A stretch of 64,000 nucleotides of DNA from Geotoga petraea. Lineage in GTDB: Bacteria > Thermotogota > Thermotogae > Petrotogales > Petrotogaceae. Positions 11,388 to 19,587 of the stretch are shown piece after piece; position 1 is the stretch's first letter; each line of letters starts with the position of its first letter. Under the pieces are notes generated by a model. It was not told the origin of the DNA. It saw nothing but the letters and a program-made list of their open reading frames with translations, and searched no databases. The position numbers and the translations under genes were made by a program. The stretch covers positions 372,913-436,912 of the forward strand of contig NZ_FMYV01000001.1 of NCBI RefSeq assembly GCF_900102615.1, read 5' to 3'.

Positions 11388-12273
11388 TTTCATCTACCTC
11401 CATATCTTCTATAATTCCATCAATATTCATAAACTCTTCAGAGTTTTCTATCTTATTTTTCAGTGCTTCCACATAATTAAAATATTTTTTTGGTGTTAAT
11501 CCTAAGTTATTCCATGCATTAATATTTGGGATTTCAATTCCAAAATTACCAGAATACCCATAATAAAGCGTATTTGTTGTAATGTTTGATATATGAATTA
11601 TTTGTACTATCATCTTTGTATTTTCATCAGATAGGTTATCTATTGAATCATGAAATCCTGCTGAATTAATTATTTGATCTGACAATCCCCATTGTTTGAA
11701 TAGCAATTTCCCTATAGCTTCATGAGAGTATGAATCTAAAATATCTTCTGCTTCTTTAAAACTAATTTTTTTATGATTTGCAATTTTTATAGTCATTTCA
11801 AAAATTTCTGGCATAATATTTGACATGGATATTTTCCCTAAATCGTGCAATAATCCCCCTAAAAAGGCTTCTTCTCTTTCTGGATAATTAATTGTTTTTG
11901 CAAGAAGCTCGGCACCGATAGCTGTTGACATTAAATGAATCCAAAACTTTTTGGTATTGAAAAAATCGTATTCCTTTCTAAAAAAATTTTTTACCGTGAA
12001 AATACTCATTGCCAAATTTCTAACAGTTTTAAAACCTAATATATTTATAGCCTGAGATAATTTTGTTATTTTTCTTGGTAATGCATAATAAGCGGAATTA
12101 GATAATTTCAATATTTTTGCGCTAAGTGAAGGAGATTCTAAAACAGCAGCATTTAAATCCTTGACGCTAGAATTAGGGTCAGAGGCTATATTTATAATTC
12201 TTTGTACTATAAAATCTGGCGTAGGTAATTCTTCAATTTTTTTTGATATAACAGAAATTGAAACTTTACTCAT
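11380..12273 (-). CDS. HDOD-domain signalling protein
   Basis: The roughly 297-residue protein is one HDOD domain (a metal-free relative of HD phosphohydrolases used in signalling). ELPTPDFIVQRIINIASDP near the start, the LSAKILKLSNSAYYALPRKI segment, AINILGFKTVRNLA and GLLHDLGKISM are typical. The HD pair is present in LLHDLGK, but enzymatic activity is not assumed. The ATG at 12273 overlaps the stop of the histidine kinase and follows GAGG by 8 nt; a GTG at 12282 is less likely. Tight coupling to the kinase suggests a functional link. Confidence 0.85.
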   Translation of the reverse strand: MSKVSISVISKKIEELPTPDFIVQRIINIASDPNSSVKDLNAAVLESPSLSAKILKLSNSAYYALPRKITKLSQAINILGFKTVRNLAMSIFTVKNFFRKEYDFFNTKKFWIHLMSTAIGAELLAKTINYPEREEAFLGGLLHDLGKISMSNIMPEIFEMTIKIANHKKISFKEAEDILDSYSHEAIGKLLFKQWGLSDQIINSAGFHDSIDNLSDENTKMIVQIIHISNITTNTLYYGYSGNFGIEIPNINAWNNLGLTPKKYFNYVEALKNKIENSEEFMNIDGIIEDMEVDENV

Positions 12274-13735
12274 TTTCAACACCTCTTGGAACAGTTATTA
12301 TAAACTTAGAACCTTCTCCCAATTGGGTTTCCAGTTGAATTGTTCCTCCATGGAGTTCTACCATATCTTTGACAATGGATAGGCCTACACCAGTTCCTTG
12401 AATTTCATAGGTTAAAGAAGTGTCAGAACGATAAAATTTATCGAACACTTTCTCTTTGTCTTCTTCTTTTATACCTATACTGTTATCTTCTATCTCTATA
12501 ATCAGTTCTTGGTTTACAGTTCTTGTTTGAATTTTTACGAATTTTTCCTCTTTTCTCTTATCAGAATATTTTATTGCATTTTGTATTAAATTGAATATAA
12601 CCTGTCTCATTCTTGTTCTGTCTAAAAAAACTTCCAAAGATTTTTCATTATCAAAGATTATATTCACTTCATTTTTCTTAGCGAAGTCTTCTAAAGTATT
12701 GCATATTTCATTAATTAATTCATTTATATCAAAATTAGTTTTTTCTAAGTTAAGAGTTTTTAATTCTAACTTCGAAAAATCAAGGAGATCGTTTAGAAGT
12801 CTATTTAGATGATTTGTTTCGCTTTGAATTGTGTTAAAAAATTCCATAAGCGTTTCATCATCCAACAACTCATATGAATCTATTATTGTATCAGAATAAG
12901 CTTTAATAGCAGAAAGAGGAGTTCTTAGTTCGTGAGACATCATAGATAAGAATTCCATTTTCATTTTGTCTAATTTTTTTAATTTTTCTAACTCTTTAGT
13001 TCCACTAATATCTCTTATAACAATTAAAACATTTTTTTCATTTTCGAATTCCAAAAAATTAGAATCAATTGAATAAAATTTATCGTTTACTTCAATTTCT
13101 TCTGATTGATTGCGTTCATTATCTAAAGTAGATATTATAATATCATTTAACTTTTCTTGAATATCAGTACCTAAATGATCGTATTTTTCATTTTTGAAGT
13201 TGATTTCTTTGTTCTCAGAAAAAACAACCATAGAATCATTTGTAGAATTGAGAATGCTATTCAAAAAGTTTTTATTTTTTTCGATTATTAAGTTTTTGTT
13301 CAATATTTTGTCGTATAAAGTTAAGTTTTCAAATAAGTTTCCAAACATAAAAGATAAAAATCTAAAAAGCATCATAGCTTCATTTGAAAAATCTTCTTCT
13401 TTTGTAATAGCAGTGTAAATAAAGTGGGTTGTATTTAAGCTAACTATTGGAATAAAAATGTAAGATAATTCTTCTTCAGGGAAAACTGATACATCCAAGT
13501 TATTGTTTACCCAAATAACCATATCTTCAATATCAGGATTGTAAGATGTATTGAAGATTTCTTTGACTTTATTTTCTTCTACTTTAAAGAAAAAATCTTT
13601 ATCAGTTTCTATCATAGTGCCTGTAATTTTCGATAAAGTTTTATAAGCAGAATCAAGATCATTTACTTTTGAAATTTCCATAATTATATTTGACAAATTC
13701 GTATAGAACGATGTATCCTTTAATTTTTCAACCAT
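12266..13735 (-). CDS. Soluble sensor histidine kinase (GAF/PAS-like, HisKA, HATPase)
   Basis: 489 residues without an obvious membrane segment. A roughly 230-residue N-terminal sensor region (GAF-like then PAS-like, by pattern only) leads through a short coiled coil to HisKA with H268 in MMSHELRTPLSAIKAY. The ATPase domain has N386 (FNLIQNAIKYS) and the GTGVGLSIVKDMV lid box (447 onward). The G1 box reads EDNSIGI: the usual glycine of DxGxG is Ser419. Thermotoga HK853 sits, as I recall, in a similar rbfA-truB context, so this may be its ortholog with a changed sensor. No response regulator is adjacent. Confidence 0.9.
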   Translation of the reverse strand: MVEKLKDTSFYTNLSNIIMEISKVNDLDSAYKTLSKITGTMIETDKDFFFKVEENKVKEIFNTSYNPDIEDMVIWVNNNLDVSVFPEEELSYIFIPIVSLNTTHFIYTAITKEEDFSNEAMMLFRFLSFMFGNLFENLTLYDKILNKNLIIEKNKNFLNSILNSTNDSMVVFSENKEINFKNEKYDHLGTDIQEKLNDIIISTLDNERNQSEEIEVNDKFYSIDSNFLEFENEKNVLIVIRDISGTKELEKLKKLDKMKMEFLSMMSHELRTPLSAIKAYSDTIIDSYELLDDETLMEFFNTIQSETNHLNRLLNDLLDFSKLELKTLNLEKTNFDINELINEICNTLEDFAKKNEVNIIFDNEKSLEVFLDRTRMRQVIFNLIQNAIKYSDKRKEEKFVKIQTRTVNQELIIEIEDNSIGIKEEDKEKVFDKFYRSDTSLTYEIQGTGVGLSIVKDMVELHGGTIQLETQLGEGSKFIITVPRGVENE

Positions 13736-15475: not shown

Positions 15476-15754
15476 ATGGTTGAAATTTATATTTGTATGG
15501 GTAGTGCATGTTATTTAAAAGGCTCAAAAGATATTGTAGATATTTTAAGTCGTTTGGTAAAAAAATATGATTTGAAAGAAAAGGTAAAATTAAAAGGATC
15601 TTTCTGTTTAGGTCCCTGCAATCAAGGTGTAGTTGTTAAGGTTGGAGATAAATTTTTCAAAAAAATGAATGTAGAAAATACAATTTCAATTTTCAAGGAA
15701 AAAATTTATCCATATATACTAGAGATAATAGAAAAGAGTGATGAAAATGAGTAA
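15476..15754 (+). CDS. Thioredoxin-like [2Fe-2S] ferredoxin
   Basis: 92-residue protein with four cysteines in the NuoE/thioredoxin-like ferredoxin pattern: C7 and C12 (ICMGSACYLKG) and a CxxxC pair (FCLGPCNQG) about 35 residues later. Such proteins carry one [2Fe-2S] cluster and pass electrons to hydrogenases or NADH dehydrogenase modules. It opens a five-gene operon ending in a hydrogenase-like protein, so it probably shuttles electrons for that sensor. ATG at 15476 follows TTGGAGATG. A weak TATAAT lies at 15379 but without a convincing -35. Confidence 0.85.
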   Translation: MVEIYICMGSACYLKGSKDIVDILSRLVKKYDLKEKVKLKGSFCLGPCNQGVVVKVGDKFFKKMNVENTISIFKEKIYPYILEIIEKSDENE

Positions 15755-16250
15755 TTTATCTAAAAACGTATGGGAATTAATTATGGATTATGATCCAAAT
15801 GGAATAATGGCAGTAGATGAAGATTTTACTATTAAACTGGTTAATCCTTCATTTGCAAAAATGTTTTATTTACAGGGAAAAGATATCATCGGAAGATCAG
15901 TTTTTGAATTTTTCAATGATTTTGAAGATTACAGACTTATTATGGAAGAAGATGAAAAAATATTAAAGAAGATTCATACTTATGAAAATTATGGTTTAAC
16001 TGTTTCTGAAGTGACTTTTAGAATTAAGTCTGAAAAACTTATAGTGAAAATATTTCATGACATTACTGATCAAGTAGAGAAAGAAAAAGAGTTAAAATAT
16101 TTAAAGATACATATAATTGAAGAAGTGCAGAAAATAGTTGATAAACAGATGAAAACAGGTCAAGAAATAGCTTCCATATTGGGAGAAACCACCGCTGAAA
16201 CCAAAGCAACATTAGTTAAATTATTAGACATACTAAAAAAAGAAAAATAA
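15747..16250 (+). CDS. PAS-domain protein of the sensory hydrogenase operon
   Basis: About 167 residues. The first 110 resemble a PAS fold (PNGIMAVDEDFTIKLVNPSF, DIIGRSVFEFF, then HDITDQVEKEKEL ending the domain). The remainder is helical and ends with KTGQEIASILGETTAETKATL. No kinase or output enzyme is fused. In some Thermotoga-type sensory hydrogenases I recall a PAS domain fused to the hydrogenase; here it is separate. The ATG at 15747 overlaps the ferredoxin stop; upstream in-frame GTG 15738 and ATG 15741 are alternatives. Confidence 0.8.
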   Translation: MSNLSKNVWELIMDYDPNGIMAVDEDFTIKLVNPSFAKMFYLQGKDIIGRSVFEFFNDFEDYRLIMEEDEKILKKIHTYENYGLTVSEVTFRIKSEKLIVKIFHDITDQVEKEKELKYLKIHIIEEVQKIVDKQMKTGQEIASILGETTAETKATLVKLLDILKKEK

Positions 16251-16263
16251 AGGAAGGTTAAAG

Positions 16264-17427
16264 ATGATTTCTTCAGTTATATATAAAAAAAGCATAAATA
16301 AATTTGGTGAAGAAGTTTGTGGAGATAATTTTCAATTAAGTAAAACAGATAATTCAAAAATAGCAGTTCTTTCTGATGGGTTGGGTAGTGGAATAAAAGC
16401 AAGTATTTTATCAATATTAACTACTGAAATAATATCAACAATGTTTAAGAAAGGTGTCGAGGTAGAAGAGATATATCAAACTATTGCAAAGACTCTACCT
16501 GTTTGTAAAATTAGAGGTATTGCTTATTCAACTTTTTCAATTGTTCAAGTTTTTAAAGATGGAAAAATAAAAATAGTGAATTATGATAATCCCACTCCTA
16601 TAATAATTCGAGGTGGTGAATTGTACTGGCCTAAATACATAAAAAAAGTGATAAATGGAAAAGATGTTTATATAAGCAATTTTTATCTTGAACCGGATGA
16701 TTTTATTTTTGTATTTTCAGATGGAATAGTTCATGCTGGTTTGGGGAATATGATGGATTTTGGATGGGGTGTAGAAAATATAGCATCATATATAAAAAGA
16801 TTGTATAGAAGAACTAGAGATATAAAATATATGGTTGATAATTTAGTCGAACTAACAAAAAGTTATTATGGTTCACAACCTGGAGATGATTCAAGCGTTG
16901 TTGGATTTAAAATAACAGAGAAACCTACAGCAATGATATTCACAGGTCCACCTTTAGATCCAAAACAGGATAAATATTTTGTCGAAGAATTCATGAAATC
17001 AGAAGGTAAAAAAATAGTTTGTGGAGGGACTACAAGTAATATAGTTGCCAGAATAATTGGAGAAGAGATTGAAATTAATTTTAATTTGGATTCAAAAAGT
17101 GATATTCCCCCATATGGAACTATGAAAGGTGTTGATCTTGTTACTGAAGGAGTCTTAACCCTTAAAGGTTTAAACAATCTTCTTAGCCAGTGTAAAAACA
17201 ACATGTTTGAAATTGATATTGAAGAGAAAAATATTGACGCAGCTGAAAAAATGTTTATAACAATAAGAGACTGTGATGAGATTACTTTACAGGTGGGTAG
17301 AAAAGTAAATGTGTTTTACCATAATCCAGCTTTACCTTTTGATATGTCTATTAGGTCAAATTTAATAAGAGATATAAAAAGTAATCTATTAAGGTTGGGA
17401 AAAGAAGTAAATGTTGAATATTGTTGA
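16264..17427 (+). CDS. SpoIIE-type PP2C protein phosphatase
   Basis: 387 residues. The N-terminal ~215 form a SpoIIE/PP2C-type serine phosphatase: the metal-binding aspartates appear in EEVCGDNFQLS and VLSDGLGSGIKA, then FVFSDGIVHAG and QPGDDSSVVGFKI. The C-terminal ~170 residues (CGGTTSNIVARIIGEE and onward) are a separate module I cannot name, which is also expected of the phosphatase next to sensory hydrogenases. It overlaps the downstream ferredoxin's ribosome site. Inferred role: converting the hydrogenase's redox/H2 signal into dephosphorylation of an unknown partner. Confidence 0.85.
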   Translation: MISSVIYKKSINKFGEEVCGDNFQLSKTDNSKIAVLSDGLGSGIKASILSILTTEIISTMFKKGVEVEEIYQTIAKTLPVCKIRGIAYSTFSIVQVFKDGKIKIVNYDNPTPIIIRGGELYWPKYIKKVINGKDVYISNFYLEPDDFIFVFSDGIVHAGLGNMMDFGWGVENIASYIKRLYRRTRDIKYMVDNLVELTKSYYGSQPGDDSSVVGFKITEKPTAMIFTGPPLDPKQDKYFVEEFMKSEGKKIVCGGTTSNIVARIIGEEIEINFNLDSKSDIPPYGTMKGVDLVTEGVLTLKGLNNLLSQCKNNMFEIDIEEKNIDAAEKMFITIRDCDEITLQVGRKVNVFYHNPALPFDMSIRSNLIRDIKSNLLRLGKEVNVEYC

Positions 17428-17438
17428 GGAGGATGAAA

Positions 17439-17681
17439 ATGAAAATAGAGATATGTGTTGGCACAACATGCCATTTGATGGGCTCTTCTACCCTCATTGA
17501 ATCATTGGAAGAATTAAATGAAAAATACTGTGAAAAAATTGATATAAAATATAGAACATGTTTTGAACTATGTCATGGCCAAATGAAACCGCCAATTGTT
17601 AAAATAGATAATAAATTTTATGAAGATATAAATCCAGAAAGAATTAAAACTATTGTGAAAAACAAATTGGGGAATGGTTGA
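17439..17681 (+). CDS. Second thioredoxin-like [2Fe-2S] protein
   Basis: 80 residues with the same four-cysteine layout as the operon's first gene: ICVGTTCHLMG and CFELCHGQ. It is a divergent paralog of that protein. GAGGAGG overlaps the phosphatase stop codon, and the ATG at 17439 has 6-nt spacing (the ATG at 17433 is too close). It sits directly before the hydrogenase-like gene, so it is probably its immediate electron partner. Confidence 0.83.
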   Translation: MKIEICVGTTCHLMGSSTLIESLEELNEKYCEKIDIKYRTCFELCHGQMKPPIVKIDNKFYEDINPERIKTIVKNKLGNG

Positions 17682-19110
17682 GATGAGGAATTTTGTTTTT
17701 AACGAAATAATGAAATTAAAAAGACAAACTCTGATGGAGATGACTAAACTTTTTGAAGAAGATAAATTGAAAGAAAGTTTGTTTTTGTTACCAAAAAAAT
17801 TATTACCAGGGCCAGAAGGAACTTATAGAGATTCTGTTTACCATGAAAGAGAGGTATTGAAACAAAGAATCAAGTTGTTTTTAGGTTTAGACTATGAAAA
17901 ATCACGTAATTTAGAACTTTTTCAAATTTCAGAGCATATAGATGAAATACTTTCTGGTAAATCAGAACTTATTGATAAGTCTAAAAAATTACATATTATT
18001 AAAGAAGGCTGTGACTCATGTCCTTCTGGTAGATATTATGTAACTGATTTATGCCGAAACTGTGTAGCTCATTCTTGTATGAATAGTTGTCCTAAAGATG
18101 CAATTCAATTTGAAGAAGGTAGGGCTAAAATAGATTCGGATAAATGTATTAGTTGTGGATTATGCCAGCAATCTTGTAATTATTATGCAATAATGAAATT
18201 AGAAAGACCATGTGAAGTGTCTTGTAAAATAGATGCTATAGAAAAAGATGAAATAGGCGCTGCGACTATAAACTATGAGAAATGTGTCACTTGTGGTTCT
18301 TGTTATATTTCCTGTCCTTTTGGCGCAGTGGAAACCACATCTTCTTTAATTAAGGTATTGTACAATTTGAAAAAAAATAGTATGAAAAAAGTGGCTCTGT
18401 TGGCACCATCTATAGTTTCTCAATTTGGACCTAAAGTTAGTATAGGAAAAATAAAATCAGCTTTAAAAAAGATAGGTTTTGAAGAGGTTTATGAAGTTGC
18501 TATAGGTGCTGATATGGTTGCAAAAGAAGAAGCCGATTACATTCAAAATTCTGATGATTTAGTAACTACATCATGTTGTCCTGCTTTTGTTGAATATGTT
18601 AGAAAATATCAATCTGAATATGAGAAAAACATATCTCCTTCTTTATCTCCAATGTCACATTTAGCAAATTATTTAAGAAAAACAGAAGAACAAGAGCTAG
18701 ATATAACTTTTATAGGACCTTGTATAGCAAAAGAAAAAGAAAACTTTTTGTTCAAGCAAGTAGATAATATTTTGACTTTTGAAGAAATTGGTATATTGTT
18801 CATAACCAAAAATATAGAGCCTTCTAACTGTGAAGAAGAGGATTTAGAAGGGAGTTATGACGGTTGGAATTTCGCTTCCAGTGGTGGAGTATCAAATGCA
18901 GTAAAAAATTATATAAATGCCGATATAAAAGATATAAAGCTAAATGGATTAAATCAAGCGAAGAAAATATTTGATGAAGTTAAAGAAAATAATTATAAAC
19001 TGTTGGAAGGGATGGCCTGTGAAGGCGGTTGTATCTGTGGACCAGGAATTATGACTAATCCTAGAATAGCTAAAAGGAAACTTAATAATCTAAAAGAAAA
19101 AATAAAATGA
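17674..19110 (+). CDS. Sensory-type [FeFe]-hydrogenase (HydS-like)
   Basis: 478 residues. After a helical N-terminus, a cysteine-rich region (113-214) holds several [4Fe-4S] sites: CRNC...CMNSCP, CISCGLCQQSC, CEVSC and CVTCGSCYISCP. The H-cluster domain carries all three motifs: TTSCCPAF (C301, C302), IGPCIAKEKE (C350) and EGMACEGGCICG (C449, C453). All H-cluster ligands and the proton-relay cysteine C301 are present. The GPC form of motif 2, rather than MPC of catalytic enzymes, and the PAS/PP2C context point to the sensory groups. The hydE/F/G maturases are not in the window. Start is the ATG at 17674 or 17683. Confidence 0.9.
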   Translation: MVEMRNFVFNEIMKLKRQTLMEMTKLFEEDKLKESLFLLPKKLLPGPEGTYRDSVYHEREVLKQRIKLFLGLDYEKSRNLELFQISEHIDEILSGKSELIDKSKKLHIIKEGCDSCPSGRYYVTDLCRNCVAHSCMNSCPKDAIQFEEGRAKIDSDKCISCGLCQQSCNYYAIMKLERPCEVSCKIDAIEKDEIGAATINYEKCVTCGSCYISCPFGAVETTSSLIKVLYNLKKNSMKKVALLAPSIVSQFGPKVSIGKIKSALKKIGFEEVYEVAIGADMVAKEEADYIQNSDDLVTTSCCPAFVEYVRKYQSEYEKNISPSLSPMSHLANYLRKTEEQELDITFIGPCIAKEKENFLFKQVDNILTFEEIGILFITKNIEPSNCEEEDLEGSYDGWNFASSGGVSNAVKNYINADIKDIKLNGLNQAKKIFDEVKENNYKLLEGMACEGGCICGPGIMTNPRIAKRKLNNLKEKIK

Positions 19111-19132
19111 GAGCTTATGCTCTCATTTTATA
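19101..19132. terminator. Bidirectional terminator, hydrogenase operon / flagellar minus-strand operon
   Basis: Arms 19102-19114 and 19119-19131 (core AAAATGAGAGC/GCTCTCATTTT, loop TTAT) lie between two convergent genes. Confidence 0.85.
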
Positions 19133-19587
19133 AATATTTCCATTTTTTCATTTGTGGACAAAACTACATTTCCTTTTTTCTTCATCACCAACAAATCACC
19201 AGGAGTTAAATCAGTAGATTCGTCATTGACTTTTATATTGATTCCTCCAGCTTGTACGAAAATTTTTTCAACTTCTTTTTCTATGGTTCCATCAGTTTTT
19301 ACAAGGTCCCATTCTTTTACTTTTAACTTTCTTAGATGTTCTTCTTCGGGAAATTTTATTAAAAAGAAATTATCAAATTCTATTTCTTTAGTTTGATCTT
19401 TAAAAAATAAATCACTTGGATTCTCCAAAGCATGATCTAAACCACCTAAAGTTTCACTTAAAAGTTCATAATATTTTGCAATTGTTTCTTCGTCATATTT
19501 TCTGTTTAAGTAATTATCTAATTCATCAAAATCAGCATCTGGGTGCTGTTCTAAGAATATTTCTACATCTTTTATAACATTTTCCAC
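19123..19587 (-). CDS. Uncharacterised protein in the flgB-flgC-fliE operon
   Basis: 154 residues, acidic, no signal peptide or membrane segment. The N-terminal ~50 residues are helical (FLEQHPDADFDELDNYLNR). The last ~45 (QAGGINIKVNDESTDLTPGDLLVMKKKG) resemble the end of a small beta-barrel such as a cupin, but the metal-binding histidines are absent. The start is GTG at 19587, 7 nt after AGGAGG. It lies 18 nt after fliE in the same direction and so is probably cotranscribed with basal-body genes. Function unknown. Confidence 0.65.
   Translation of the reverse strand: MENVIKDVEIFLEQHPDADFDELDNYLNRKYDEETIAKYYELLSETLGGLDHALENPSDLFFKDQTKEIEFDNFFLIKFPEEEHLRKLKVKEWDLVKTDGTIEKEVEKIFVQAGGINIKVNDESTDLTPGDLLVMKKKGNVVLSTNEKMEIFIK

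What the first reader, a model, noticed from the sequence alone, without database searches (positions are those of the whole stretch)
15476..19110. Split sensory [FeFe]-hydrogenase operon with PAS, PP2C and two [2Fe-2S] proteins
Seen: gene order is [2Fe-2S] Trx-like, PAS, SpoIIE/PP2C, second [2Fe-2S] Trx-like, hydrogenase with all H-cluster cysteines. Starts overlap or nearly so throughout. Known: HydS-type proteins are proposed H2/redox sensors, and PAS and PP2C domains recur around them. What differs here is that PAS is a stand-alone protein and two paralogous [2Fe-2S] shuttles flank the signalling genes. The proton-relay Cys (C301 of TSCCP) is retained, which I recall being lost in some sensory types. 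Inference: H2 or redox state is read by the hydrogenase, relayed through PAS, and output by protein dephosphorylation.
Basis: partly seen in the sequence, partly recalled or inferred. Interest (0 to 1): 0.66.

Follow-up and report, generated by a model that had tools for sequence, protein, structure and literature searches.

The report
Hydrogenase operon with sensor domain missing
This is a hydrogen-making enzyme encoded with a three-gene signalling cassette (iron-sulfur protein, PAS protein, protein phosphatase) that in other bacteria includes a dedicated hydrogen-sensing hydrogenase; here that sensor is absent, and the same sensor-less cassette turns up beside unrelated enzymes, including the nickel hydrogenase of cyanobacteria.

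Summary
The five genes are real and in the stated order, but the hydrogenase is not the sensor. It passes the curated group B model (TIGR04105, 496 bits, cut-off 450) and groups with HydA2/HfsD-type catalytic enzymes, away from sensory HydS. The operon matches hfsABCD / hydS-hydA2 of Thermoanaerobacterium and Ruminococcus albus with one difference: the sensory hydrogenase is absent, here and from the whole 99.75%-complete genome; only its PAS-plus-helix module remains, as a separate protein. This is not local decay: phosphatases beside a stand-alone PAS form one clade of 54 rows across about a dozen phyla. The trio [2Fe-2S] protein-PAS-phosphatase lies beside group B [FeFe] hydrogenase, [FeFe] HydABC and, in 17 filamentous cyanobacteria, [NiFe] hox genes; a separate PAS-alone lineage lies beside CO dehydrogenase. 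Of 25 such genomes checked, 18 have no [FeFe] H-domain at all. Best reading: a redox-signalling cassette that needs no H-cluster; the [2Fe-2S] protein reads electron-carrier state and signals through PAS and its conserved helix to the phosphatase. Parts and distribution are shown; signal, direction and target are inferred. I found no description of the sensor-less cassette in the open-licence papers held.

The parts
15476..15754 (+). Fd1: small thioredoxin-like [2Fe-2S] protein of the signalling module; HfsA-like position in the operon
   Evidence: PF01257 2.6e-9, CX4C...CX3C; nearest solved sequence is the C-terminal [2Fe-2S] segment of T. maritima HydA; directly upstream of PAS or HydS in most loci
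15741..16250 (+). Stand-alone PAS protein with a 60-residue C-terminal helix; corresponds to the C-terminal module of HydS without H-domain and without the C-terminal [4Fe-4S] segment
   Evidence: PAS Pfam and NCBIfam hits; alignment with HydS ends; 47-row family alignment A3; model pLDDT 84; tail conservation
16264..17427 (+). SpoIIE-type PP2C/PPM phosphatase (residues about 1-220) with a conserved C-terminal domain of unknown kind (about 221-387); HfsC-like
   Evidence: PF07228; RsbX and SpoIIE nearest in PDB by sequence; model pLDDT 91.5; fold search; no Pfam or PDB match for the C-terminal domain
17439..17681 (+). Fd2: second small [2Fe-2S] protein, partner of the hydrogenase
   Evidence: PF01257 4e-8; directly upstream of the group B hydrogenase in both gene orders
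17683..19110 (+). Group B monomeric [FeFe]-hydrogenase, HydA2/HfsD type, catalytic-type active site
   Evidence: TIGR04105 496 bits over cut-off 450; R. albus HydA2 577 bits; H-domain tree

Best explanation
The operon joins two modules. Module C (Fd2 plus group B [FeFe]-hydrogenase) most likely makes H2 from reduced ferredoxin. Module S (Fd1, stand-alone PAS, PP2C) is the HfsA-HfsB-HfsC / HydS-phosphatase pathway with the sensory hydrogenase domain absent. Most likely mechanism: the [2Fe-2S] cluster of Fd1 reports the redox state of the ferredoxin/hydrogenase electron pool; Fd1 acts on the PAS protein; the PAS protein's conserved C-terminal helix docks on and switches the PP2C, which has no N-terminal linker of its own; the phosphatase dephosphorylates a regulator, perhaps a STAS protein, and so adjusts hydrogenase and fermentation gene expression. 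It would work like RsbP (PAS-helix-phosphatase) with the parts on two chains. Shown: identity of the parts, the two-module structure, absence of HydS from this genome, conservation of the module without any H-cluster sensor. Inferred: Fd1 as sensor, the Fd1-PAS and PAS-PP2C contacts, the sign of the effect, the target.
For: Hydrogenase is group B. No HydS among the genome's three H-domains. PAS core is diverged from HydS (0.24 identity) but the tail helix is shared (0.64) and is the most conserved part of the family. Fd1-PAS-PP2C travel together and Fd2-HydB travel together, in swapped orders. Phosphatases beside a stand-alone PAS are one clade, support 98. Trio beside [FeFe] group B, HydABC, [NiFe] Hox and CODH; 18 of 25 such genomes have no [FeFe] H-domain. 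G095 has a HydS with H-domain and tail but no PAS, next to a stand-alone PAS with the same tail. PPM-linker-PAS control is described for RsbU/RsbP (PMC12143880). Homologous operons have regulatory phenotypes: hfsA/hfsB deletions change adhE expression and fermentation (PMC5707799); the R. albus cluster is 111-fold lower in co-culture at low H2 (PMC6776011).
Against: No interaction or function was tested. Nine of 53 PAS-alone loci with sequence upstream have no recognised Fd1 beside PAS (corrected), so Fd1 cannot be the input everywhere unless it lies elsewhere. 20 of 53 loci have no hydrogenase within the stretch read. The phosphatase target is unknown. In T. saccharolyticum the hfsA deletion also lowered downstream expression, so its phenotype is not clean (PMC5707799).
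Confidence: 0.5

Rival explanations
1. The catalytic group B hydrogenase itself is the H2 sensor: its electrons from H2 reduce Fd1 or act on PAS directly, so the enzyme replaces HydS (closest to the first reader).
For: Same operon, tight linkage; HydS is missing so something may take its place; the homologous cluster in R. albus responds to H2 (PMC6776011).
Against: The same Fd1-PAS-PP2C clade occurs beside [NiFe] Hox and HydABC, and as a lone trio, so the input cannot depend on a group B enzyme in general; the active site is catalytic-type; Fd2, not Fd1, is the constant neighbour of the enzyme.
Confidence: 0.2
2. The PAS protein senses a small ligand or nucleotide itself; Fd1 is only a structural or electron-transfer partner of the hydrogenase.
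For: PAS domains often bind ligands; Fd1 is not recognised in some loci; short LOV proteins are the nearest folds.
Against: Fd1 stays with PAS rather than with the hydrogenase when gene order changes; no Cys or His is universal in the PAS family, which argues against a heme or Fe-S cofactor but not against other ligands.
Confidence: 0.2
3. Decayed hfs operon: the PAS protein is a non-functional leftover of HydS.
For: HydS is absent; the PAS protein resembles the end of HydS.
Against: The PAS-alone form is one widespread clade with its own conserved N-terminal motif LWELLWDYDPNG and a strongly conserved tail.
Confidence: 0.04

Closest known systems
hfsABCD operon of Thermoanaerobacterium (and C. 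thermocellum hfs)
   Same: SpoIIE-type phosphatase (HfsC) and HydA2-like ferredoxin-linked hydrogenase (HfsD, group B in PMC8924675); small protein HfsA resembling part of large [FeFe] subunits, as Fd1 does
   Different: HfsB, the PAS-bearing sensory [FeFe]-hydrogenase, is absent; a PAS-only protein stands in its place; an extra [2Fe-2S] protein precedes the hydrogenase
hydS-hydA2 cluster of Ruminococcus albus 7
   Same: Two [2Fe-2S] proteins, SpoIIE phosphatase and group B HydA2 in one cluster
   Different: R. albus has full HydS (558 aa) and adjoining adhE; the window has neither
HydS / group C sensory [FeFe]-hydrogenases (TmHydS and relatives)
   Same: PAS core and the conserved tail helix before a SpoIIE phosphatase
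   Different: No sensory H-domain and no C-terminal [4Fe-4S] segment in the PAS protein; the hydrogenase in the operon is group B, not HydS
RsbP / RsbU of Bacillus subtilis
   Same: PAS (RsbP) plus helical linker controlling a PPM phosphatase; PPM relatives RsbX and SpoIIE are the nearest solved sequences
   Different: PAS-helix and PPM are separate proteins, with a [2Fe-2S] protein and hydrogenase in the operon; substrate unknown; unknown C-terminal domain on the phosphatase
Cyanobacterial hoxEFUYH(W) clusters
   Same: In 17 filamentous strains the same trio follows the hox genes; in three loci read in full it lies between hoxH and a hoxW-like gene
   Different: [NiFe] enzyme; hox papers found here do not mention the trio, and Lyngbya majuscula, as described, lacks it

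Membership tests
Group B monomeric [FeFe]-hydrogenase | Passes curated model TIGR04105 | tested here: met
   496 bits, cut-off 450
Group B monomeric [FeFe]-hydrogenase | H-domain groups with HydA2/HfsD-type enzymes, apart from group A and HydS | tested here: met
   Clade support 97; HydS 100, group A 99
Group B monomeric [FeFe]-hydrogenase | Produces H2 from ferredoxin | not testable with these tools
   Known for other members (PMC12578642)
HydS / group C sensory [FeFe]-hydrogenase | H-domain fused through a C-terminal [4Fe-4S] segment to PAS | tested here: not met
   Hydrogenase ends after the H-domain; PAS protein has no H-domain or FeS segment
HydS / group C sensory [FeFe]-hydrogenase | H-domain in the HydS clade | tested here: not met
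   Falls in the group B clade
HydS / group C sensory [FeFe]-hydrogenase | Proton-relay Cys usually replaced (Cys in 17% of sensory sequences, PMC10055695) | tested here: not met
   TSCCP retained
hfsABCD-type operon | Phosphatase (HfsC) plus group B hydrogenase (HfsD) | tested here: met
hfsABCD-type operon | PAS-bearing sensory hydrogenase HfsB | tested here: not met
   Absent from operon and genome
RsbP-like PAS-linker-PPM system | PAS domain, helix, PPM phosphatase | tested here: met
   On two chains rather than one
RsbP-like PAS-linker-PPM system | Helix controls the phosphatase | not testable with these tools
   Only tail conservation is shown
RsbP-like PAS-linker-PPM system | Dephosphorylates a STAS protein | not testable with these tools
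   Four STAS proteins with DS(A/S)G in the genome, none linked to the operon

The most novel reading that the evidence does not exclude
Fd1-PAS-PP2C is an ancient, portable redox-sensing cassette that needs no H-cluster and serves catalytically unrelated enzymes (group B and HydABC [FeFe] hydrogenases, [NiFe] Hox, CO dehydrogenase); the [2Fe-2S] protein is the sensor, and sensory hydrogenase HydS is one specialised version with an H-domain added rather than its origin.
Probability: 0.4. Interest if true: 0.8.

Novelty: new variant of a known kind. Interest (0 to 1): 0.62.

Why it matters
HydS is proposed to sense H2 with its H-cluster, but direct evidence is thin. A natural system that keeps the PAS helix, the phosphatase and the [2Fe-2S] partner but lacks the H-cluster separates H2 sensing from redox sensing and gives a smaller version to test. 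It also points to an apparently unexamined regulator beside the bidirectional hydrogenase genes of filamentous cyanobacteria such as Planktothrix and Arthrospira, which are of interest for H2 production.

Tried and rejected
Hydrogenase as a sensory type: rejected by family model and tree. HydS elsewhere in the genome: not found. Decay of a local operon: rejected by the clade of PAS-alone phosphatases. Ser/Thr kinase partner: no Hanks kinase in the genome. PAS cofactor from conserved Cys or His: none universal. Identity of the PP2C C-terminal domain: no Pfam or PDB sequence match; the top fold-search matches span only about the length of the PPM domain. A C-terminal Cys of PP2C (39 of 54 PAS-alone rows, 3 of 37 HydS-type) could be a redox residue, but it is not universal and may reflect descent. 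Promoter and terminator scans gave no more than shuffles. The phosphatase tree was not rooted, so gain or loss of the H-domain is open.
Full report
OBSERVATION. The five genes are present, intact and tightly packed on the + strand. Family searches confirm two thioredoxin-like [2Fe-2S] proteins (here Fd1 and Fd2), a PAS protein, a SpoIIE-type phosphatase and an [FeFe]-hydrogenase.

THE HYDROGENASE IS GROUP B. It passes the curated TIGR04105 model (496 bits, cut-off 450) and fails the group A model (132 bits, cut-off 406). R. albus HydA2 and homologues from Fusobacteriales, Dependentiae, Halanaerobacter and Sedimentisphaerales also pass; the three HydS-type proteins tested score 157-224 and fail. 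In a tree of 79 H-domains the classes separate: HydS support 100, group A 99, group B with the window 97. By pattern search TSCCP was found in all 29 group A rows assessed and 16 of 19 group B rows; none of the HydS rows gave TSCCP, though two gave TTCCP and 26 were not matched by the pattern. The residue before PC in P2 is Gly in group B as in HydS, Met in group A; the residue before AC in P3 is Met in 15 of 19 group B and 26 of 29 group A rows, and mostly Leu or Ser in HydS. Group B enzymes are reported as active H2 producers that reoxidise ferredoxin in gut bacteria (PMC12578642), and TsHfsD is called group B and possibly the main H2-producing enzyme of its host (PMC8924675).

THE OPERON IS hfs / hydS-hydA2 WITHOUT THE SENSOR. 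In R. albus 7 the order is adhE, a phosphotransferase, two (2Fe-2S) proteins, HydS, SpoIIE phosphatase, HydA2 (identities of the last and of HydS). In Thermoanaerobacterium it is hfsABCD: HfsB is the PAS-bearing hydrogenase, HfsC a phosphatase homologue, HfsD the HydA2-like enzyme (PMC11837493). I equate HfsA with Fd1 by operon position and by that paper's remark that part of it matches large [FeFe] subunits; Fd1 here matches such a segment. That step is inference. The genome (99.75% complete) has only two other H-domains, both full-length HydA proteins beside NuoE/NuoF-type subunits; one passes the group A6 model. So there is no HydS. G045, G039, G019 and G021 have the same arrangement, and their other listed H-domains are group A-size frames of 571-602 aa.

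THE PAS PROTEIN MATCHES THE C-TERMINAL MODULE OF HydS. It has a PAS core and a helix of about 60 residues (model pLDDT 84). The helix (consensus VVDKQMKVAQEIAGLLGETTAETK) is the best conserved part, 0.84 against 0.53 for the core, and it is what is shared with HydS: 0.64 identity against 0.24 in the core. In genome G095 a HydS-like protein keeps the H-domain, the FeS segment and this helix but has no recognisable PAS, and a stand-alone PAS with its own helix lies beside it. That is one genome, but it suggests helix pairing or shared docking on the phosphatase.

TWO MODULES. The order is either Fd1-PAS-PP2C-Fd2-HydB or Fd2-HydB-Fd1-PAS-PP2C: Fd1 goes with PAS or HydS, Fd2 with the catalytic enzyme. 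In T. saccharolyticum deletions of hfsA or hfsB give one phenotype and deletions of hfsC or hfsD another (PMC5707799), although the hfsA deletion also lowered downstream expression.

HOW WIDESPREAD. A search with the stand-alone PAS family returned 80 loci, some with HydS. Phosphatases beside a stand-alone PAS form one clade of 54 rows (support 98, including G095), apart from those beside HydS; three changes of state suffice, against about 30 in shuffles. Of 53 PAS-alone loci, 17 lie with HoxEFU, 6 with a group B enzyme, 6 with [FeFe] HydA, 2 with NuoE/NuoF only, 2 with CO dehydrogenase and 20 with none of these within the stretch read; two of the 53 re-find the Thermotogota genomes G101 and G084. 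In the cyanobacteria Laspinema, Planktothrix and Arthrospira the trio sits between hoxH and a hoxW-like gene (Pfam for the Laspinema NiFe subunits and the Arthrospira hcp product; the hoxW-like protein had no Pfam hit, so its name rests on appearance and position). The CODH-linked trio falls in a different part of the phosphatase tree, so the stand-alone form arose or survived at least twice. Of 25 genomes checked, 18 have no [FeFe] H-domain and 21 have a [NiFe]-family match. The cassette therefore does not need an H-cluster sensor.

MECHANISM. Shown: parts, linkage, absence of HydS, conservation. Inferred: Fd1 as redox sensor, because it is the redox protein common to most contexts; PAS and its helix as relay; PP2C as output. 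Coiled-coil control of PPM phosphatases is described for RsbU and predicted for RsbP (PMC12143880), and the nearest solved sequences to this PPM are RsbX and SpoIIE, which suggests but does not show a STAS substrate. Four STAS proteins with a DS(A/S)G site and no Hanks kinase are in the genome. The 111-fold lower expression of the R. albus cluster in co-culture, attributed there to H2 level (PMC6776011), supports an H2- or redox-linked output for the homologue. That the C-terminal cluster of TamHydS (group D) is not reduced by H2 (PMC13104023) does not decide between these readings.

LIMITS. 14 of 53 loci were flagged as lacking an adjacent Fd1; one search shows an Fd1 just outside the distance rule or inside an over-extended ORF in two (L067, L107), and three are cut by contig ends, leaving nine. 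Completeness of the non-Thermotogota genomes was not given. The [NiFe] tally may include complex I relatives among its weakest hits. The literature check covers open-licence papers only; Calusinska 2010 and Poudel 2016 were not available, so novelty is provisional.

VERDICT. Observation confirmed; 'sensory hydrogenase' not supported; 'signalling operon with stand-alone PAS' supported and found to be part of a wider, apparently undescribed pattern. New variant of a known kind.

Noticed in passing
L055, L056, L058, L059, L061, L062, L065, L067, L068, L070, L071, L073, L077, L079, L082, L086, L089: Fd1-PAS-PP2C trio follows hox [NiFe]-hydrogenase genes in 17 filamentous cyanobacteria; in L056, L062 and L079 it lies between hoxH and a hoxW-like gene, and hcp sits between hoxF and hoxU in L062 and L079.
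   Followed up: partly
L115:4113-9636, L116:1544-4241: A PAS-alone trio lies downstream of CO dehydrogenase-type genes (Prismane/CODH protein and a 4Fe-4S dicluster protein in L115; NTPase and 4Fe-4S protein in L116).
   Followed up: partly
L039:4288-6224 (genome G095): A HydS-like protein with H-domain, FeS segment and tail helix but no recognisable PAS sits next to a stand-alone PAS with the same kind of tail: a naturally split HydS.
   Followed up: partly
L042:5767-7331 (genome G090): HydS is split into a 301-aa H-domain ORF and a 230-aa FeS-PAS-like ORF that overlap in different frames.
   Followed up: partly
window 16924-17427 (+): C-terminal domain of the phosphatase (motifs GPP, CGGTT, DLVTEG) is as conserved as the PPM domain but has no Pfam or PDB sequence match; a terminal Cys is frequent in PAS-alone systems and rare in HydS-type ones.
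   Followed up: partly
window 19123-19587 (-): Convergent 154-aa protein with no Pfam or NCBIfam match; a homologue-like ORF sits in the same place in L034.
   Followed up: no
window 12266-13735 (-): Sensor histidine kinase (HisKA, HATPase) on the other strand, separated from the operon by mgtE; no evidence of a link.
   Followed up: no
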